Shown here one piece after another: positions 8,284-15,588 of a stretch of 52,725 nt of DNA. Positions within the stretch are counted from its first letter, which is position 1, and each line of letters starts with the position of its first letter. The notes under the pieces were generated by a model. It was not told the origin of the DNA. It saw only the letters and a program-made list of their open reading frames with translations, and did not search any database. The position numbers were made by a program, and so were the translations under genes. Origin of the DNA: an uncultured Selenomonadales bacterium (GTDB lineage Bacteria; Bacillota; Negativicutes; Selenomonadales; Selenomonadaceae). The stretch lies in assembly GCA_900314765.1 (NCBI GenBank), contig OMWN01000019.1, forward strand, positions 1 through 52,725, given 5' to 3'.

Positions 8284-8553
8284 TCATTTGTCGCCATAGT
8301 GACCACGACACGAAATAATATCTACAGTTTCGTCGATAATCCTAAACAACAATCTATCCTTCTGATTCACACGGACACTCCATAGCCCAGCCAAGTCACC
8401 TACCAAAGGCTCAGGTTTTCCTAATTGACACTCAAGCCCATTCCTACGTATATCTTTTATGAGTTGATTGATTTTGCGTAAAAAACGTTTATCCTCATTT
8501 TGGATTTCCACATATTCATCCCATGCCTTATCAATCCATTTCAAATCTAGCAT
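8284..8553 (-). CDS. YoeB/Txe-type toxin
   Basis: An 89-residue RelE-superfamily mRNA interferase, expected to cut mRNA at the ribosome. Family features are GIGKPEPL-like spacing (here LGKPEPLVGDLAGLWSVRV) and the C-terminal ISCRGHYGDK, whose His and Tyr belong to the YoeB active site. The gene starts one base after its antitoxin stop. It is probably inert in complex with the antitoxin. The call as a Txe/YoeB toxin is strong; activity in this strain is not shown. Confidence 0.88.
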   Translation of the reverse strand: MLDLKWIDKAWDEYVEIQNEDKRFLRKINQLIKDIRRNGLECQLGKPEPLVGDLAGLWSVRVNQKDRLLFRIIDETVDIISCRGHYGDK

Positions 8554-8554
8554 T

Positions 8555-8824
8555 TTACGCCTCTATTAGTTCGTGACTCTCCACTTCTCCTGCTTTAGCC
8601 TTTTCAAGGCGACGACGAAACTCTCTTGCCTCGGCAGGTGTAAAGCCATTCTCATCCAGTAATGAAAAATGCATGCTTTGCGAACGCACAGTTTGTTTTA
8701 CCAGCGCATTAAGCGCGGCTGACATAGATATGCCAATAGCATCGCAAAGCCTGCTGAATTCGTCTCTTGTGTCAATGTCCATCTTAAACGTAAAATTCGC
8801 TTTCTTTAATGATACAGTACTCAT
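8555..8824 (-). CDS. RelB/DinJ-type antitoxin
   Basis: An 89-residue antitoxin with an N-terminal ribbon-helix-helix (residues 9-52: KANFTFKMDIDTRDEFSRLC, then a helix ISMSAALNALV), followed by a toxin-wrapping tail (FTPAEAREFRRRLEKA). It represses its own operon and neutralises the adjacent YoeB-type toxin. The promoter just upstream is a near-perfect sigma-A site that contains ACATAT repeats, a likely operator for autorepression. It lies between ilvE and the flagellin island. Confidence 0.88.
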   Translation of the reverse strand: MSTVSLKKANFTFKMDIDTRDEFSRLCDAIGISMSAALNALVKQTVRSQSMHFSLLDENGFTPAEAREFRRRLEKAKAGEVESHELIEA

Positions 8825-9025: not shown

Positions 9026-10876
9026 TTACTGCAACAAGCTCAGCACGCTTGACGAGTTCTGATTTGCCTGCGCGAGTATTGACTGCGCCGTACTAAGGAG
9101 CACGTTGTTTTTCGTGTACTCAGTCATCTCTTTCGCCATGTCCGCGTCGCGGATTGTTGACTCGGAGCTCTGCACATTTTCGCTCGCGGTAGTGAGGTTT
9201 GTCGCCGTGTACTCGAGCCGGCTCTCCATGGCGCCTATCGTCGTCTGCGTGTCGAGAGCCTTTTCCACGGCCTTGTCAATGAGGTCTATGCTTTGCATCG
9301 CCTTGTCGCGCGTCGCAACCGATATATTCTCTCCCGTCGACGAACGCAGGCCAAGCGATTTCGCCCTCATATCAAAGGTGAATACCCTTATCGCTTGATT
9401 TGACTTCGTGCCAACTTGCAGCAAGAGGAAATTATTGAGCCGTTTCCGCCCGTTTTTCGAGAGCCCTACGAAATCCTCAGGCCACTCAATCTCAAGATCG
9501 TCTATCACGGTGAGCTTGCCATCGGGAGACGTCCATACGGACGGATCAGTCGTCTCAGGGACTACACTCTCCGCCGTTTTTGTTTGGCCACTCCCCGCGT
9601 CTGAGCCAGTTATCGATCCCGTGTCAGCGTTCGTGAGAATTATATTGCAACTGTTTAGAAGAAAATCATCAAGGCTTGAACTGTTTCCCAAGTCGTTTAT
9701 AAGCGAATTAATTGCAGCATCCATCGTAGCGAATTTGCCACCTGTCGCCGCATTTATCGCCTCATTTACCACGGCATTTCCATCATTGCTCGTAGATGTC
9801 CTGAGCACATCCATAAACGTTTTCATGTTCGTCGCCGCATCTGATGAAGCTCCATTTTTGGCAACATAACGCCACAGCACGTATCCCGCAGCATACGCAG
9901 TATCTGTGAGTTTTATGTTATCTTTGCTCATAATAGGCTTTGCATCAAGCGCATCCTTAAAATTATCTTTTGTAAGCGACCGTATGGTATATCCGCGAAA
10001 ATCATCAATACCATGAACGAGCTCTGCCATTCCTTCCACTAGATAATCAGGCAAACTGCGAAACGTTTTCACATTTGCCGCCATTATGGCATGGGTCATC
10101 TCGTGCGTAATGACTCTGTCAAGATATCCCGCCTCTGGACGCAGCGAGTTACCGTTTGGGTCTGTCGTGCTCATGTTTTTAAAATAATCCATATTCACAT
10201 GAAGCTCCAGCTTGGCGACATCTCCACTGGGAACACTGTAAAAGCTTCGTACAAAGGCAAGCGCATTTGAAAGATTTGCTGGCTCCGTCTCATCCATATA
10301 AACCGTAATGCGATTGATTTTTGTCGTGGGCTGGCCAAACGTTGTCGCATACGACTGCTGGATGAGGTCCAGCGAGTCCTTCAGCCACTCGCTGTTAAGG
10401 CCCCGAATAAGGAAGTCCGACACTGACTCGATAGGACCGACGCCACTCGCATTGCCAGGAATATTCAGCAAGTATTTCCCATTGAACGTAACTTGTGAAT
10501 TATCGTCCACTTGGTCGATTGCCTGGTCGATCTCCTTCTGTATCGTCGCACGGTCAATGTCGGTATTCGTGTCATTCGCCGCATCGAGTGCTTTCTCCTT
10601 CAGCGTCTTCAGTATGTCAACAGTCGATGACACTGCCCCTTCAGCGGTGCGAAGCATGCTTATGCCGTTCTGCGTGTTCCTGACATCTTGGTCGAGGCCA
10701 CGCACCTCCACTCGCATGCGCTCCGATATTGAGTACCCCGACGCGTCGTCGCCCGCGCTGTTTATGCGCATGCCCGACGACACTTTTGCAAGCGACTTCG
10801 CGAGCGCTGTCTTATTTTTTTTCAACGTGTTCAGCGCATTCGTAGCCGATTTGTTATTTTTGATGACGAGTCCCAC
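9026..10876 (-). CDS. Flagellin with HExxH metallopeptidase domain (flagellinolysin type)
   Basis: A 616-residue protein with intact flagellin ends and a protease in the middle. Residues 1-135 are the D0/D1 N-terminus (VSSGMRINSAGDDASGYSIS), and about 500-616 are the C-terminal D1/D0 ending QNSSSVLSLLQ. The exposed central region holds THEMTHAIMA, a zinc-binding HExxH (His258, Glu259, His262). The third-ligand helix VEGMAEL lies 19 residues later (Glu281 or Glu285), a gluzincin arrangement. Flagellinolysins, known in diverse bacteria, assemble into filaments that digest protein; this is family knowledge. The start is a GTG at 10876 because GGAG lies eight bases upstream. The second flagellin is 102 bases upstream. 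Substrate specificity is unknown. Confidence 0.92.
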   Translation of the reverse strand: MGLVIKNNKSATNALNTLKKNKTALAKSLAKVSSGMRINSAGDDASGYSISERMRVEVRGLDQDVRNTQNGISMLRTAEGAVSSTVDILKTLKEKALDAANDTNTDIDRATIQKEIDQAIDQVDDNSQVTFNGKYLLNIPGNASGVGPIESVSDFLIRGLNSEWLKDSLDLIQQSYATTFGQPTTKINRITVYMDETEPANLSNALAFVRSFYSVPSGDVAKLELHVNMDYFKNMSTTDPNGNSLRPEAGYLDRVITHEMTHAIMAANVKTFRSLPDYLVEGMAELVHGIDDFRGYTIRSLTKDNFKDALDAKPIMSKDNIKLTDTAYAAGYVLWRYVAKNGASSDAATNMKTFMDVLRTSTSNDGNAVVNEAINAATGGKFATMDAAINSLINDLGNSSSLDDFLLNSCNIILTNADTGSITGSDAGSGQTKTAESVVPETTDPSVWTSPDGKLTVIDDLEIEWPEDFVGLSKNGRKRLNNFLLLQVGTKSNQAIRVFTFDMRAKSLGLRSSTGENISVATRDKAMQSIDLIDKAVEKALDTQTTIGAMESRLEYTATNLTTASENVQSSESTIRDADMAKEMTEYTKNNVLLSTAQSILAQANQNSSSVLSLLQ

Positions 10877-10935: not shown

Positions 10936-10961
10936 ATATCGTAAGATTGGATGAAACTTAA
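10936..10961 (-). promoter_or_regulatory. Possible sigma-28 promoter of the flagellinolysin gene
   Basis: Minus-strand TTAA (10958-10961), 15 bases, then ACGATAT (10936-10942) resembles the flagellar sigma-D/28 pattern TAAA-N15-CCGATAT. It is about 60 bases before the GTG start. The match is partial. Confidence 0.45.
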
Positions 10962-10978: not shown

Positions 10979-13900
10979 TCACTGCAGCAAACTCAGTACA
11001 CTGCCAGCGCTCTGGTTTGCCTGCGCGAGCATGGTCTGCGAGGCTTGCGCGAGGACGTTTGCCTTTGTGTAGTCCATCATTTCCTTTGCCATGTCAGAAT
11101 CGCGAATCGTGCTCTCCGATGCCTGCGTATTTTCTTTCTGCGTGACGATATTCGCGTCCGCAATTTCCATACGCTTTATCTGCGCGCCGACGAGCGTATT
11201 GGTATCCGTCAGATAGTCAATCGCTTTGTCAAGGACGCCTGGGTGCTTTGGCGGAGTGCCAAGTAAGCGTGTGCGCATGTCCTTGTCCGTCACTTTGTAA
11301 TCATAGGCAGTCTCATCGCCCGGAATGAACGCAAAAATCTGATCCATCGTCGTGCGTGGGATGAAGAGCTTGATGTTTCTGTTTGCCTTGTCCGTATGCT
11401 GAATAATCAGCTCATCGCAAAGAATATCACGCTTTTTGAGCATGACATTGTCAATGACGCCATCCGCAATCTTTGCGCCTTCTTCCTGATAATCGTAGTA
11501 ATAAGGGTCATTGACAGCCCAATGCCTACGGTCAAACATCGTGACCACGCCATCCTCCGCAATGCGCAGGCGCATGTAGTGATCAAAATGCTCTTCTCCT
11601 TCTACCTTTCCCTCCAGATACGGCTGTGCTTGGTCGTAGAATGCCTGTGCCAGCCCTTTTGCGTCCTTAACGCCGGCAGTGTTGATGACGATGCTCTTGA
11701 TCGTATCCTCATCCGTGCCGCTTTCTGGACGTTCGCCCTCGACTTCTCCGTTGACAAATATGAAATTCCACCATTCGCGCGCATCCGTCGCGCAATAAAC
11801 ACGAAAACCCTTGCAGTCAAGCTGTTCCATCAGCTTACCGAAATCGGCATAATCCTTATTCGCTTTAGCCGCTTCATCCGCCCATTTGGCAAAATCAATG
11901 TCATACATGCGAAGCGACGCCCTCTTGACATCAAGCGTTGCCCCGCCCGCAGGACTATCCCACGGGCATGTGATTGTCACGCCATTTGCATCCGACGTCA
12001 CGGTATCAAGCGTCTCTTCTTTATATTCCTGCTTGTCCTTGTCCCATGCACCATGCTTGATATACGTGCTTGGGTCGGCCTCCTTCATCAGCTGAGCAAA
12101 AGCCTCATTGAGAGTTTTGCCTTCATTCACAGCCTGACGCATCATGTCGACGTCTATGGCGCTGCCTGTCGAGGCGCGCGGCTCCGCGTAAATGCCGCCC
12201 TTCGAATCAATGAACTCAATTTGGCCACCAAAATACGTGATGGATTTGCCACGCAAGTCCTTGATGAAGTCCTCCACATCCGTACCGTCCGGCGGATACG
12301 AGATGGTGATCGAGGCATGCTCGCCATCCTCGCCATGCTTTGTGATGGTAAAGCCGTTCTTGTAGTCAATAGCTGGCTCGCTGTCAAACTCTTTCACAGC
12401 GTCATAGGACGTAGTCTGCGTCACGTCAGGAACAGCAGGCTGTGCAGGCGTAGGCGGGACAACGATGGGCGACGTAGCAGCAACATGGATGCTGTCCGTC
12501 AGATAGTAGCCATTATAGTACGTTCCCTCATCTGGAGCAGTCAACGTCATTGTGCCATTCGCCATGGTGAGCGTCATGCCGTTGAAATCATATGTGCCAT
12601 TTGCGGCCTTGCCTATGGAAAAGCAATTTGATTTTTCCTCTTCCAAACCGCTTGTTCCGCCGATGAATTTCAGCATGCCGACGATTCCGCCATATTTACT
12701 GTGCACCGTGATGCCCGACCCATCTGGCGCATTGGAAACCGATAACTCGACAAACGCTTTTTCCCCCGGTATGTGTGGATGCCTAATACGATCAACATCA
12801 TCAGGATCAGGTGGCAAATAGTCAGAAATCACACCGCTGGCATCCTCGCCATGATCAAAATATTTTTCCTTCCCTTGAATCAACCCAGTAGACGAATAAT
12901 TATACCCCGGCTTTCCCGGAATTGTGTACCCATTAGTGGCGGGGATCGCAGGATGTCCTTTTGTTATGACCTTCGTATTAGTATGAGCTTCGCACTCCAC
13001 ACCGTCAAAATTGATGTGAGCGGATGCCGCACCCGTTGAATATGTTGTGTATATGACATTGGAGCCGTTGACGGTCGCACCCACATCATCGCCTTTGGCA
13101 TTGACGGCACTTGCAATGGCATTCGCAATCTGCGCGTACGTGGTCATGCCGGAAATATCTATATTAGTGGCAAACTCATTGAGATGATTCGTTTGATAGT
13201 TTTTGTCTCGAAATGACTGGCTCGCATCGGTCGTCAGCACATACCAATTATAATTGATGCGAAAGCCGACATTGTCGAGCAATGACACGTTGTCCTGTCC
13301 GTTTGTCTGCCCATACCCTGCAAGAGTCATCTTGTATTCGGATTGCGTTCCTGCCGTGCCGCCAGTGAACGGATTCGACGATGCCAGATTGAGAGATGGG
13401 ATAGTCGAAGCCGTTTCCTCATACTCGTGAAAAATATCAAACGGCCCCTCAACGCCGTCAAGCGTCGGATGATATCTGTGATCAACTTTGCCGAGCTCCG
13501 TATACTCCCATGATTCGTCAGGTATGATACCATCATCACTGTCCGGCTGCATCTGCACTTTGCCGGGTTTCCCCCAATGACGTACAGTCTTCAGAATCGT
13601 ATCGCCGAACAATACTCGCCTGCCATTATAGGAAGTCGATACCGCGATGTCGTCTATCTGGTCGTAGCTCTGGTTGATTTCCTTCTGAATTGTTGCACGG
13701 TCGATTTCCGTGTTCGTGTCGTTGCTCGCGTCAATGACTTTCTGCTTGACTGTCCGAATGATGTCAATCTGATTTTGGATGCCGCCCTCGGCCACACGCA
13801 GGAGCTTTGCACCATTCTGCACGTTCTGCGTGTCCTGATTCAGTGCTCGCAAACGCACACGCATACGCTCAGAGATTGAGTACTCCGACGCGCCGTCGCC

Positions 13901-14023
13901 TGCGCCATTGATTCTCATGCCGCTTGCGACTTTCTTGAGTGACTTGCTGAGCGTCGTGTCGTTCTTCTTCAGCTGGCCAAGAGCCAACATCGCGCTCCCG
14001 TTGTTCATAACGGTCATTGTCAT
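10979..14023 (-). CDS. Giant flagellin with very large central insertion
   Basis: A flagellin of about 1014 residues, where typical ones have 270-550. The N-terminus (VASGMRINGAGDGASEYSIS) and C-terminus (ending QSAGSVLSLLQ) are canonical D0/D1, and the NDTNTEIDRATIQKEI block is shared with the adjacent flagellin. Between about residues 135 and 920 is an insertion exposed on the filament surface, rich in Gly, Asp, Tyr and Pro, with a Pro-rich linker (VVPPTPAQPAVPDV) dividing it into at least two parts. No HExxH or other known catalytic motif is visible. The start at 14023 follows CGGGGGAA; a longer frame is not supported. It has its own sigma-A-like promoter next to the XRE palindrome. The function of the insertion is unknown. 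Confidence 0.92.
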   Translation of the reverse strand: MTMTVMNNGSAMLALGQLKKNDTTLSKSLKKVASGMRINGAGDGASEYSISERMRVRLRALNQDTQNVQNGAKLLRVAEGGIQNQIDIIRTVKQKVIDASNDTNTEIDRATIQKEINQSYDQIDDIAVSTSYNGRRVLFGDTILKTVRHWGKPGKVQMQPDSDDGIIPDESWEYTELGKVDHRYHPTLDGVEGPFDIFHEYEETASTIPSLNLASSNPFTGGTAGTQSEYKMTLAGYGQTNGQDNVSLLDNVGFRINYNWYVLTTDASQSFRDKNYQTNHLNEFATNIDISGMTTYAQIANAIASAVNAKGDDVGATVNGSNVIYTTYSTGAASAHINFDGVECEAHTNTKVITKGHPAIPATNGYTIPGKPGYNYSSTGLIQGKEKYFDHGEDASGVISDYLPPDPDDVDRIRHPHIPGEKAFVELSVSNAPDGSGITVHSKYGGIVGMLKFIGGTSGLEEEKSNCFSIGKAANGTYDFNGMTLTMANGTMTLTAPDEGTYYNGYYLTDSIHVAATSPIVVPPTPAQPAVPDVTQTTSYDAVKEFDSEPAIDYKNGFTITKHGEDGEHASITISYPPDGTDVEDFIKDLRGKSITYFGGQIEFIDSKGGIYAEPRASTGSAIDVDMMRQAVNEGKTLNEAFAQLMKEADPSTYIKHGAWDKDKQEYKEETLDTVTSDANGVTITCPWDSPAGGATLDVKRASLRMYDIDFAKWADEAAKANKDYADFGKLMEQLDCKGFRVYCATDAREWWNFIFVNGEVEGERPESGTDEDTIKSIVINTAGVKDAKGLAQAFYDQAQPYLEGKVEGEEHFDHYMRLRIAEDGVVTMFDRRHWAVNDPYYYDYQEEGAKIADGVIDNVMLKKRDILCDELIIQHTDKANRNIKLFIPRTTMDQIFAFIPGDETAYDYKVTDKDMRTRLLGTPPKHPGVLDKAIDYLTDTNTLVGAQIKRMEIADANIVTQKENTQASESTIRDSDMAKEMMDYTKANVLAQASQTMLAQANQSAGSVLSLLQ

Positions 14024-14097
14024 CGTAAATTCCCCCGTTCGTCCATGAACTTTGCATCTTGCAATTTCTTGCAATTTTCCTTATTAACCTAAATCCT

Positions 14098-14650: not shown

Positions 14651-15547
14651 TTATTTCAGCGCTTCTTTGAGTGTCTCCATGTTTGCCCTCATGCGATTGA
14701 TGTAGTCGTCAGCGGCTGTTTCTTTTGCCTCGCCCGTGACTATGGGGTCGAGTGTGTAGATTGTCGCGCCTGTCGCGCTCGCTATGGTCTCAGCGGCTTT
14801 GGGTGAGTGCTGCGGCTCGGTGAAGAGCGCTTTCGTGCACGACGCGTTTACCTGCTCTATCGTTTTCTCAAGCTCGGCGGGTGTCGGCTCGGTGCCGGGC
14901 TCGCGCTCTATGACGGAGACGATGTTGAGCTTGAATTCTTTCGCGAAGTACGGGAATGCCTCGTGGAATGTCACGATGTCTTTGTTCGGCAAGTCGTCGA
15001 GCGCGTCGTGCATCTCGTGACGAAGGTCTGTGAGACGATTGACGTACGTGAGCGCATTTTTCCTGTACGCGTCGGCGTGCGCGGGGTCAGCCGCGCAGAG
15101 TTCGCGCACGATTTCTTTGACCTGCATCATCGAGTACGTGACGCTCATCCAGACGTGCGGATTTGGCTCGCCGTCCTGCTCGATGAACTTTATTTCGTCC
15201 CATTTCGACGCGTCGATGACTTTGAGATTTTTGTGGCTCTCTATGACTTTGCCCATGAAACTCTCCATGCCCGCGCCATTGACGACGAATATGTCGGCGC
15301 TCTCGAGCGTCTTCATGTCCTTCGTCGTGAGCTGGTAGTCGTGAAGGCAGCCTGTCTGCGGCTCCGTCATGTTCGAGACCTCGACGCCTTCGACGCCCTT
15401 CGTGATGTTTATGACGTCGATGTACATCGGGTAGAACGACGTGACGATGTGCACTTTGCCGTCGCCTGCGGCCTTTTTCTCGCCGCCACAGCCCGCGAGC
15501 ATCGCGCACATGATGACGCACGCGATGAGCCATACGATTTTTTTCAA
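14651..15547 (-). CDS. ZnuA/AdcA-type metal-binding lipoprotein
   Basis: A 298-residue cluster 9 (TroA-fold) substrate-binding lipoprotein for Zn(II) or Mn(II). It has a lipobox LAGC near residue 19-22 and metal-ligand candidates His in CLHDYQLTTKD, His in NPHVWMS, His in TFHEAFPYFAKEF, and the EPQHSP loop. There is no His-rich loop of classic ZnuA. The start is a TTG at 15547, eight bases after GAGG; the frame opens nine bases earlier at a GTG overlapping that site. No permease or ATPase gene is adjacent, so it is an orphan binding protein. Which metal it binds is not decidable here. Confidence 0.9.
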   Translation of the reverse strand: MKKIVWLIACVIMCAMLAGCGGEKKAAGDGKVHIVTSFYPMYIDVINITKGVEGVEVSNMTEPQTGCLHDYQLTTKDMKTLESADIFVVNGAGMESFMGKVIESHKNLKVIDASKWDEIKFIEQDGEPNPHVWMSVTYSMMQVKEIVRELCAADPAHADAYRKNALTYVNRLTDLRHEMHDALDDLPNKDIVTFHEAFPYFAKEFKLNIVSVIEREPGTEPTPAELEKTIEQVNASCTKALFTEPQHSPKAAETIASATGATIYTLDPIVTGEAKETAADDYINRMRANMETLKEALK

Positions 15548-15588
15548 TCCATTCACCTCATATTCATACGAAAATTTTCACATATTTC

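What the first reader, a model, noticed from the sequence alone, without database searches (positions are those of the whole stretch)
9026..10876. Flagellin carrying a zinc metallopeptidase: filament as a protease
Intact D0/D1 ends surround a gluzincin-type active site (HEMTH plus EGMAE 19 residues later). Such flagellinolysins are known from a limited number of bacteria. Every filament subunit would bring an active site to the surface, so the flagellum could digest host or feed protein in an amino-acid-consuming anaerobe. Both the ligands and the third Glu are present, so loss of activity is unlikely.
Basis: partly seen in the sequence, partly recalled or inferred. Interest (0 to 1): 0.8.

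Follow-up and report, generated by a model that had tools for sequence, protein, structure and literature searches.

The report
Protease flagellin with circularly permuted sisters
The window encodes a genuine flagellin with a built-in zinc protease, a kind already known, but in the same bacterial family the same protease domain is often wired into flagellins, and into secreted RTX proteins, in circularly permuted order, a variant I could not find described.

Summary
Window 9026-10876, minus strand, encodes a 616-aa flagellinolysin: flagellin D0/D1 at both ends around a HEMTH...E peptidase. It scores 260 bits against NCBIfam NF033876 (cut-off 205). By itself it is a new member of a known kind (Eckhard et al. 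2017). It has its own sigma-28-like promoter and sits behind a giant peptidase-free flagellin. The genome holds five flagellin genes and only this one carries the peptidase, so not every subunit would bear an active site.

The surprise is in the relatives. The genome belongs to Selenomonadaceae, where 136 of 189 searched genomes carry this peptidase. The window has the canonical order: HExxH half (A), then C-terminal helical half (B). Many intact, conserved flagellins have B before A. In 28 of 28 such flagellins and 21 of 21 RTX-type proteins, rotating the sequence at the B|A boundary restores the canonical match, gaining 78 bits or more. All 30 canonical flagellins are best unrotated. AlphaFold models show the same elements in rotated order. 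At least 11 genomes carry both topologies, including Anaerovibrio lipolyticus and Selenomonas ruminantium strains. I found no description of this permutation in the papers searched. Activity of either form remains inferred.

The parts
9026..10876 (-). flagellinolysin CDS (616 aa, GTG start), order flagellin N - A - B - flagellin C
   Evidence: NF033876 260 bits over cut-off 205; block HMMs; start by RBS and flagellin alignment
10463..10864 (-). N-terminal flagellin D0/D1 (residues 5-138)
   Evidence: PF00669 6.3e-36; AlphaFold model matches solved flagellins, best Z about 20
9857..10411 (-). peptidase block A (residues 156-340), holding the HExxH helix and third Glu
   Evidence: block HMM; model helix-strand pattern
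10091..10105 (-). HEMTH zinc motif, residues 258-262, catalytic Glu259
   Evidence: sequence; HExxH present in all 87 copies compared
10034..10036 (-). Glu281, predicted third zinc ligand (E of EGMAE)
   Evidence: sequence; invariant in the alignment of 25 A-B flagellins
9479..9823 (-). peptidase block B (residues 352-466), C-terminal helical half; precedes A in permuted relatives
   Evidence: block HMM; rotation tests
9029..9427 (-). C-terminal flagellin D1/D0 (residues 484-616)
   Evidence: block HMM; PF00700 3.3e-22 over residues 530-615
10937..10960 (-). sigma-28-like promoter TAAGTTTCATCCAATCTTACGATA, 84 nt before the start
   Evidence: pattern scan; the same motif lies before another flagellin gene of this genome and several of relatives; about 0.015 expected per 260 bp
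10979..14023 (-). neighbouring giant flagellin without peptidase (ORF opens at 14074, likely ATG at 14023), directly upstream
   Evidence: PF00669 and PF00700; backbone clade of 12 giant flagellins, SH-aLRT 99

Best explanation
The window gene is a flagellinolysin. It is predicted to be exported and polymerised like any flagellin through its D0/D1 ends (inferred), as one of five flagellins of this cell, so a fraction of filament subunits would carry a surface zinc endopeptidase: Glu259 as base, His258, His262 and Glu281 as zinc ligands. It is probably transcribed from its own sigma-28-type promoter, together with or beside the giant flagellin upstream. The inserted domain is a self-contained module whose two ends lie close together. 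For that reason it also exists in Selenomonadaceae as a circular permutant: block B first, then a linker of about 9 residues, then block A, inserted at the same place between D1N and D1C, and also at the N-terminus of RTX proteins. The permuted form would hold the same active site but be tethered to the filament from a different face. Shown by computation: architecture, motif, conservation, permutation, coexistence of both forms. Inferred: assembly, proteolysis, orientation, nutritional role.
For: Family: NF033876 260.3 bits, cut-off 205. Flagellin ends by Pfam and by structure: VIA Z about 20 to solved flagellins for both models. Permutation: domain order N-B-A-C in 28 flagellins against N-A-B-C in 30. 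Scoring every third rotation against a canonical-order HMM, all 28 permuted flagellins and all 21 permuted RTX-type proteins peak at the B|A boundary (gain 78 bits or more), and all 30 canonical flagellins at zero. AlphaFold secondary-structure order is a rotation between the window protein and the A. lipolyticus permutant. Permuted flagellins match Peptidase_M9 in 20 of 24 members. Purifying selection on both forms. Family counts.
Against: No activity or filament data. The window protein itself has no Pfam peptidase hit below 0.1, and the fold searches listed only flagellins, so its gluzincin fold is not independently confirmed. Model confidence is moderate (mean pLDDT 76.5 and 79.4). One permuted copy, in S. 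ruminantium ATCC 12561, lacks the third Glu (Ala instead), and one, in Selenomonas sp. AE3005, has an in-frame TAA, so some permuted copies may be inactive.
Confidence: 0.85

Rival explanations
1. The insert keeps the peptidase fold but serves as a binding or structural domain; proteolysis is lost or incidental.
For: Some relatives have degraded sites: E->A in S. ruminantium ATCC 12561, an in-frame stop in Selenomonas sp. AE3005.
Against: Both the HExxH motif and the third Glu are retained across nearly all other copies at about 40-50% identity. Family members from C. haemolyticum (PMC5595980) and Hylemonella gracilis (PMC7643111) were characterised as proteases.
Confidence: 0.12
2. The B-A order is not a circular permutation but an artefact: mis-assembly, or two unrelated helical segments that happen to match.
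For: Many loci are from metagenome-assembled genomes.
Against: Found in isolate genomes (A. lipolyticus DSM 3074 and LB2005, Schwartzia succinivorans DSM 10502, S. ruminantium ATCC 12561). Intact frames under purifying selection. The rotation optimum falls at the block boundary in every case. The models show the same elements in rotated order.
Confidence: 0.03
3. The permuted and canonical flagellins differ only by neutral drift; the topology has no functional meaning.
For: The same catalytic motif is kept in both; circular permutants usually keep their fold (general knowledge).
Against: Both forms are kept side by side in at least 11 genomes and differ in setting: canonical genes mostly sit within 100 bp of another flagellin gene (about 18 of 25), permuted ones mostly do not (about 5 of 26; counted by hand).
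Confidence: 0.45

Closest known systems
Flagellinolysin (FlaMP), C. haemolyticum FliA(H); NCBIfam NF033876; PMC5595980
   Same: Flagellin D0/D1 around a gluzincin insert with HExxH and a downstream Glu; A-B order; co-occurs with peptidase-free flagellins
   Different: 18 residues between HExxH and the third Glu here, against 24 by the residue numbers given for FliA(H); selenomonad branch separate from the other Bacillota members in the tree; many selenomonad relatives are permuted or RTX-fused
Hylemonella gracilis flagellinolysin (PMC7643111)
   Same: Same architecture, experimentally characterised proteolytic flagellin
   Different: Not a selenomonad; the paper does not mention permutation
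Peptidase family M9 (bacterial collagenases)
   Same: Gluzincin motif; most permuted relatives show weak Pfam M9 matches
   Different: The window protein has no M9 hit and no Gly-Gly after the third Glu (EGMAE); not a member
RTX proteins (PF00353)
   Same: Selenomonad RTX proteins carry the same peptidase module, mostly in B-A order
   Different: No flagellin ends; probably type I secreted (inferred from RTX repeats and lack of an evident signal peptide)

Membership tests
Flagellinolysin (NF033876) | Score over the curated family cut-off | tested here: met
   260.3 bits against 205
Flagellinolysin (NF033876) | Flagellin N and C D0/D1 regions at both ends | tested here: met
   PF00669, PF00700; VIA Z about 20 to solved flagellins
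Flagellinolysin (NF033876) | HExxH plus downstream Glu in the hypervariable region | tested here: met
   HEMTH 258-262, Glu281; conservation
Flagellinolysin (NF033876) | Canonical block order A-B | tested here: met
   Window protein N-A-B-C; the 28 permuted relatives have N-B-A-C
Flagellinolysin (NF033876) | Metal-dependent proteolysis, incorporation into filaments | not testable with these tools
   Needs protein and filament assays
Peptidase M9 collagenase | Sequence match to the M9 profile | tested here: not met
   Window protein: no M9 match at E 0.1; 20 of 24 permuted relatives match, best 3.2e-5
Peptidase M9 collagenase | Gly-Gly motif of clostridial collagenases | tested here: not met
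   EGMAE has a single Gly; Eckhard et al. report the motif absent from flagellinolysins
Gluzincin clan MA(E) fold | Fold of the insert | tested here: inconclusive
   Fold searches were filled by flagellin hits

The most novel reading that the evidence does not exclude
Selenomonadaceae use one zinc-protease module in two circularly permuted topologies, both kept by selection and often in the same genome, displayed on flagellar filaments from different tether points and shared with RTX proteins. The module moves between filament display and probable type I secretion.
Probability: 0.7. Interest if true: 0.7.

Novelty: new variant of a known kind. Interest (0 to 1): 0.58.

Why it matters
Natural circular permutation of an enzyme inserted into a self-assembling filament protein, with both topologies kept in one genome, makes it possible to ask how tether geometry affects an enzyme displayed on flagella. 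The RTX relatives bear on an open question of the 2017 paper, which left the ancestral protease of flagellinolysins undetermined. Permuted copies can pass the NCBIfam flagellinolysin cut-off (220.8 bits in A. lipolyticus LB2005), so annotation names them without revealing the rotation.

Tried and rejected
Fold search of the two full-length models (Foldseek and VIA) returned only flagellins in the rows shown, so the peptidase fold was not tested separately. A profile of block A against PDB sequences gave no hit. A single A-B/B-A split of the domain tree is not rejected (p-AU 0.092) although the best tree needs four changes of order, so the number and direction of permutation events stay open. 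No adjacent A-B-A or B-A-B duplication intermediate was seen in the loci examined; proteins with several B-A units exist (L110), but the units are separated by long stretches. Paper searches on permuted flagellins or flagellinolysin found nothing relevant; the held library misses most subscription papers.

Full report
What the window holds. On the minus strand at 9026-10876 lies a 616-aa flagellin with an inserted zinc-peptidase domain. The second GTG (10876) is the better start: it gives (M)GLVIKNN like other flagellins and has GGAG 8 nt upstream. HEMTH is residues 258-262 and Glu281, 18 residues after His262, is the expected third ligand. Pfam sees Flagellin_N and Flagellin_C. NCBIfam NF033876 'flagellinolysin' matches across the whole insert at 260 bits, cut-off 205. 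The gene is therefore an ordinary-looking member of the family described by Eckhard et al. 2017 (PMC5595980) and later for Hylemonella gracilis (PMC7643111).

Setting. Directly upstream on the same strand is a giant flagellin of about 1,010-1,030 aa without a peptidase. It belongs to a clade of giant flagellins (backbone tree, 12 rows, SH-aLRT 99). A sigma-28-like promoter, TAAG-N15-CGATA, lies 84 nt before the flagellinolysin; the same motif precedes another flagellin gene of this genome and several flagellin genes of relatives, with about 0.015 hits expected per 260 bp. The whole genome has seven Flagellin_N hits, five in flagellin-type genes, and only one flagellinolysin. 'Every subunit carries an active site' is therefore not what the genome predicts.

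Taxon. Its family code f1 includes G029, whose contig of 39,910 bases matches in length Selenomonas ruminantium ATCC 12561 NZ_AUJE01000035.1 and whose proteins are identical to those of L075 over the compared domains, so the family is Selenomonadaceae. In that family 136 of 189 genomes carry the peptidase block. In a spread of 398 genomes of the phylum only 10 do, six of them in this family and two of the others with weak partial matches.

The permutation. I split the insert into block A (HExxH half) and block B (C-terminal helical half) and scanned all loci. Thirty flagellins read N-A-B-C, as the window does. Twenty-eight read N-B-A-C; one of these has an in-frame TAA. Twenty-six domain copies in proteins without flagellin ends read B-A and two read A-B; those examined mostly carry RTX repeats. 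As a control I rotated each A/B segment in steps of three residues and scored it against an HMM of canonical inserts. All 28 permuted flagellins and all 21 single-copy permuted RTX-type proteins peak at the B|A boundary with gains of 78 bits or more; all 30 canonical flagellins peak at zero rotation (first version). The HMM was built from the canonical inserts themselves, so the canonical result is partly by construction; the permuted result is not. AlphaFold models of the window protein (pLDDT 76.5) and of the permuted protein of A. lipolyticus LB2005 (79.4) show the same elements rotated. Window: helix 152-176, strands 189-228, HExxH helix 252-268, helices 277-340, helices 347-410, hairpin 455-464. 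Permutant: helices 149-209, hairpin 252-261, helix 269-294, strands 307-341, HExxH helix 366-382, helices to 453. Median linkers fit: about 9 residues between B and A in permutants, about 12 between A and B in canonical forms.

Reality and spread. The permutants occur in isolate genomes (A. lipolyticus DSM 3074 and LB2005, Schwartzia succinivorans DSM 10502, Anaerovibrio sp. JC8 and RM50, S. ruminantium ATCC 12561). Peptidase inserts of both orders are under purifying selection (dN/dS about 0.05-0.17; synonymous sites are near saturation in several pairs, so the ratios are rough). Twenty of 24 permuted flagellins show Peptidase_M9 matches at E up to 0.1, linking the domain to gluzincins. Counting by hand in the family searches, 51 genomes hold a full-length A-B match, 34 hold a B-A match over 380 bits, and 11 hold both. 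One genus reaches 18 matches per genome, in open frames up to 4,524 aa. Two permuted copies look impaired: S. ruminantium ATCC 12561 (third Glu is Ala) and Selenomonas sp. AE3005 (in-frame TAA).

History. Other Bacillota flagellinolysins (G194, G484) are A-B, and the NF033876 model is A-B, so A-B looks ancestral for the family. Within selenomonads the best tree needs four changes of order, but a single split is not rejected (p-AU 0.092). The window protein is a long branch with no firm neighbour.

How it probably works. By analogy with C. haemolyticum, where the proteolytic flagellin is up to about 10% of the filament and purified filaments cleave peptides (PMC5595980), the window protein is expected to co-polymerise with other flagellins and act as a surface protease. 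Because the ends of the domain lie together, the module can be opened elsewhere; the permutant would be held by the face between the A and B halves. I infer a different orientation of the active site; no coordinates were available to measure it.

Novelty. The window gene alone is a new member of a known kind. The permuted sister flagellins and RTX relatives are a new variant; I found no description of them in the held papers.

Noticed in passing
L092:7485-10877; L167:8693-10828: Flagellinolysin fused in frame to a second flagellin (N-A-B-C-N-C, 1,130 aa in L092; N-A-B-C-N, cut by the contig end, in L167, a genome of the window's own genus): a double flagellin.
   Followed up: partly
L110:4608-10490; L168; L169: Very large RTX-type proteins with the permuted peptidase, three B-A units in L110 and open frames up to 4,524 aa (G359) in one genus; probably type I secreted.
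   Followed up: partly
window 14651-15556 (-): ZnuA-type zinc-uptake binding protein gene upstream of the two flagellins, same strand; a link to the zinc protease is only a guess.
   Followed up: no
window 8284-8824 (-): YoeB-like toxin gene with a likely antitoxin gene beside it, just downstream of the flagellinolysin.
   Followed up: no
L042:7049-8944 / L075:5634-7529: S. ruminantium ATCC 12561 permuted flagellin has Ala in place of the third zinc-ligand Glu (TAGAAE) although the intact canonical copy lies next to it: a possible pseudo-enzyme pair.
   Followed up: partly
window 10979-14074 (-): Giant flagellin with roughly 790 residues between its flagellin ends and no informative Pfam domain; related giant flagellins recur beside A-B flagellinolysin genes in relatives.
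   Followed up: partly
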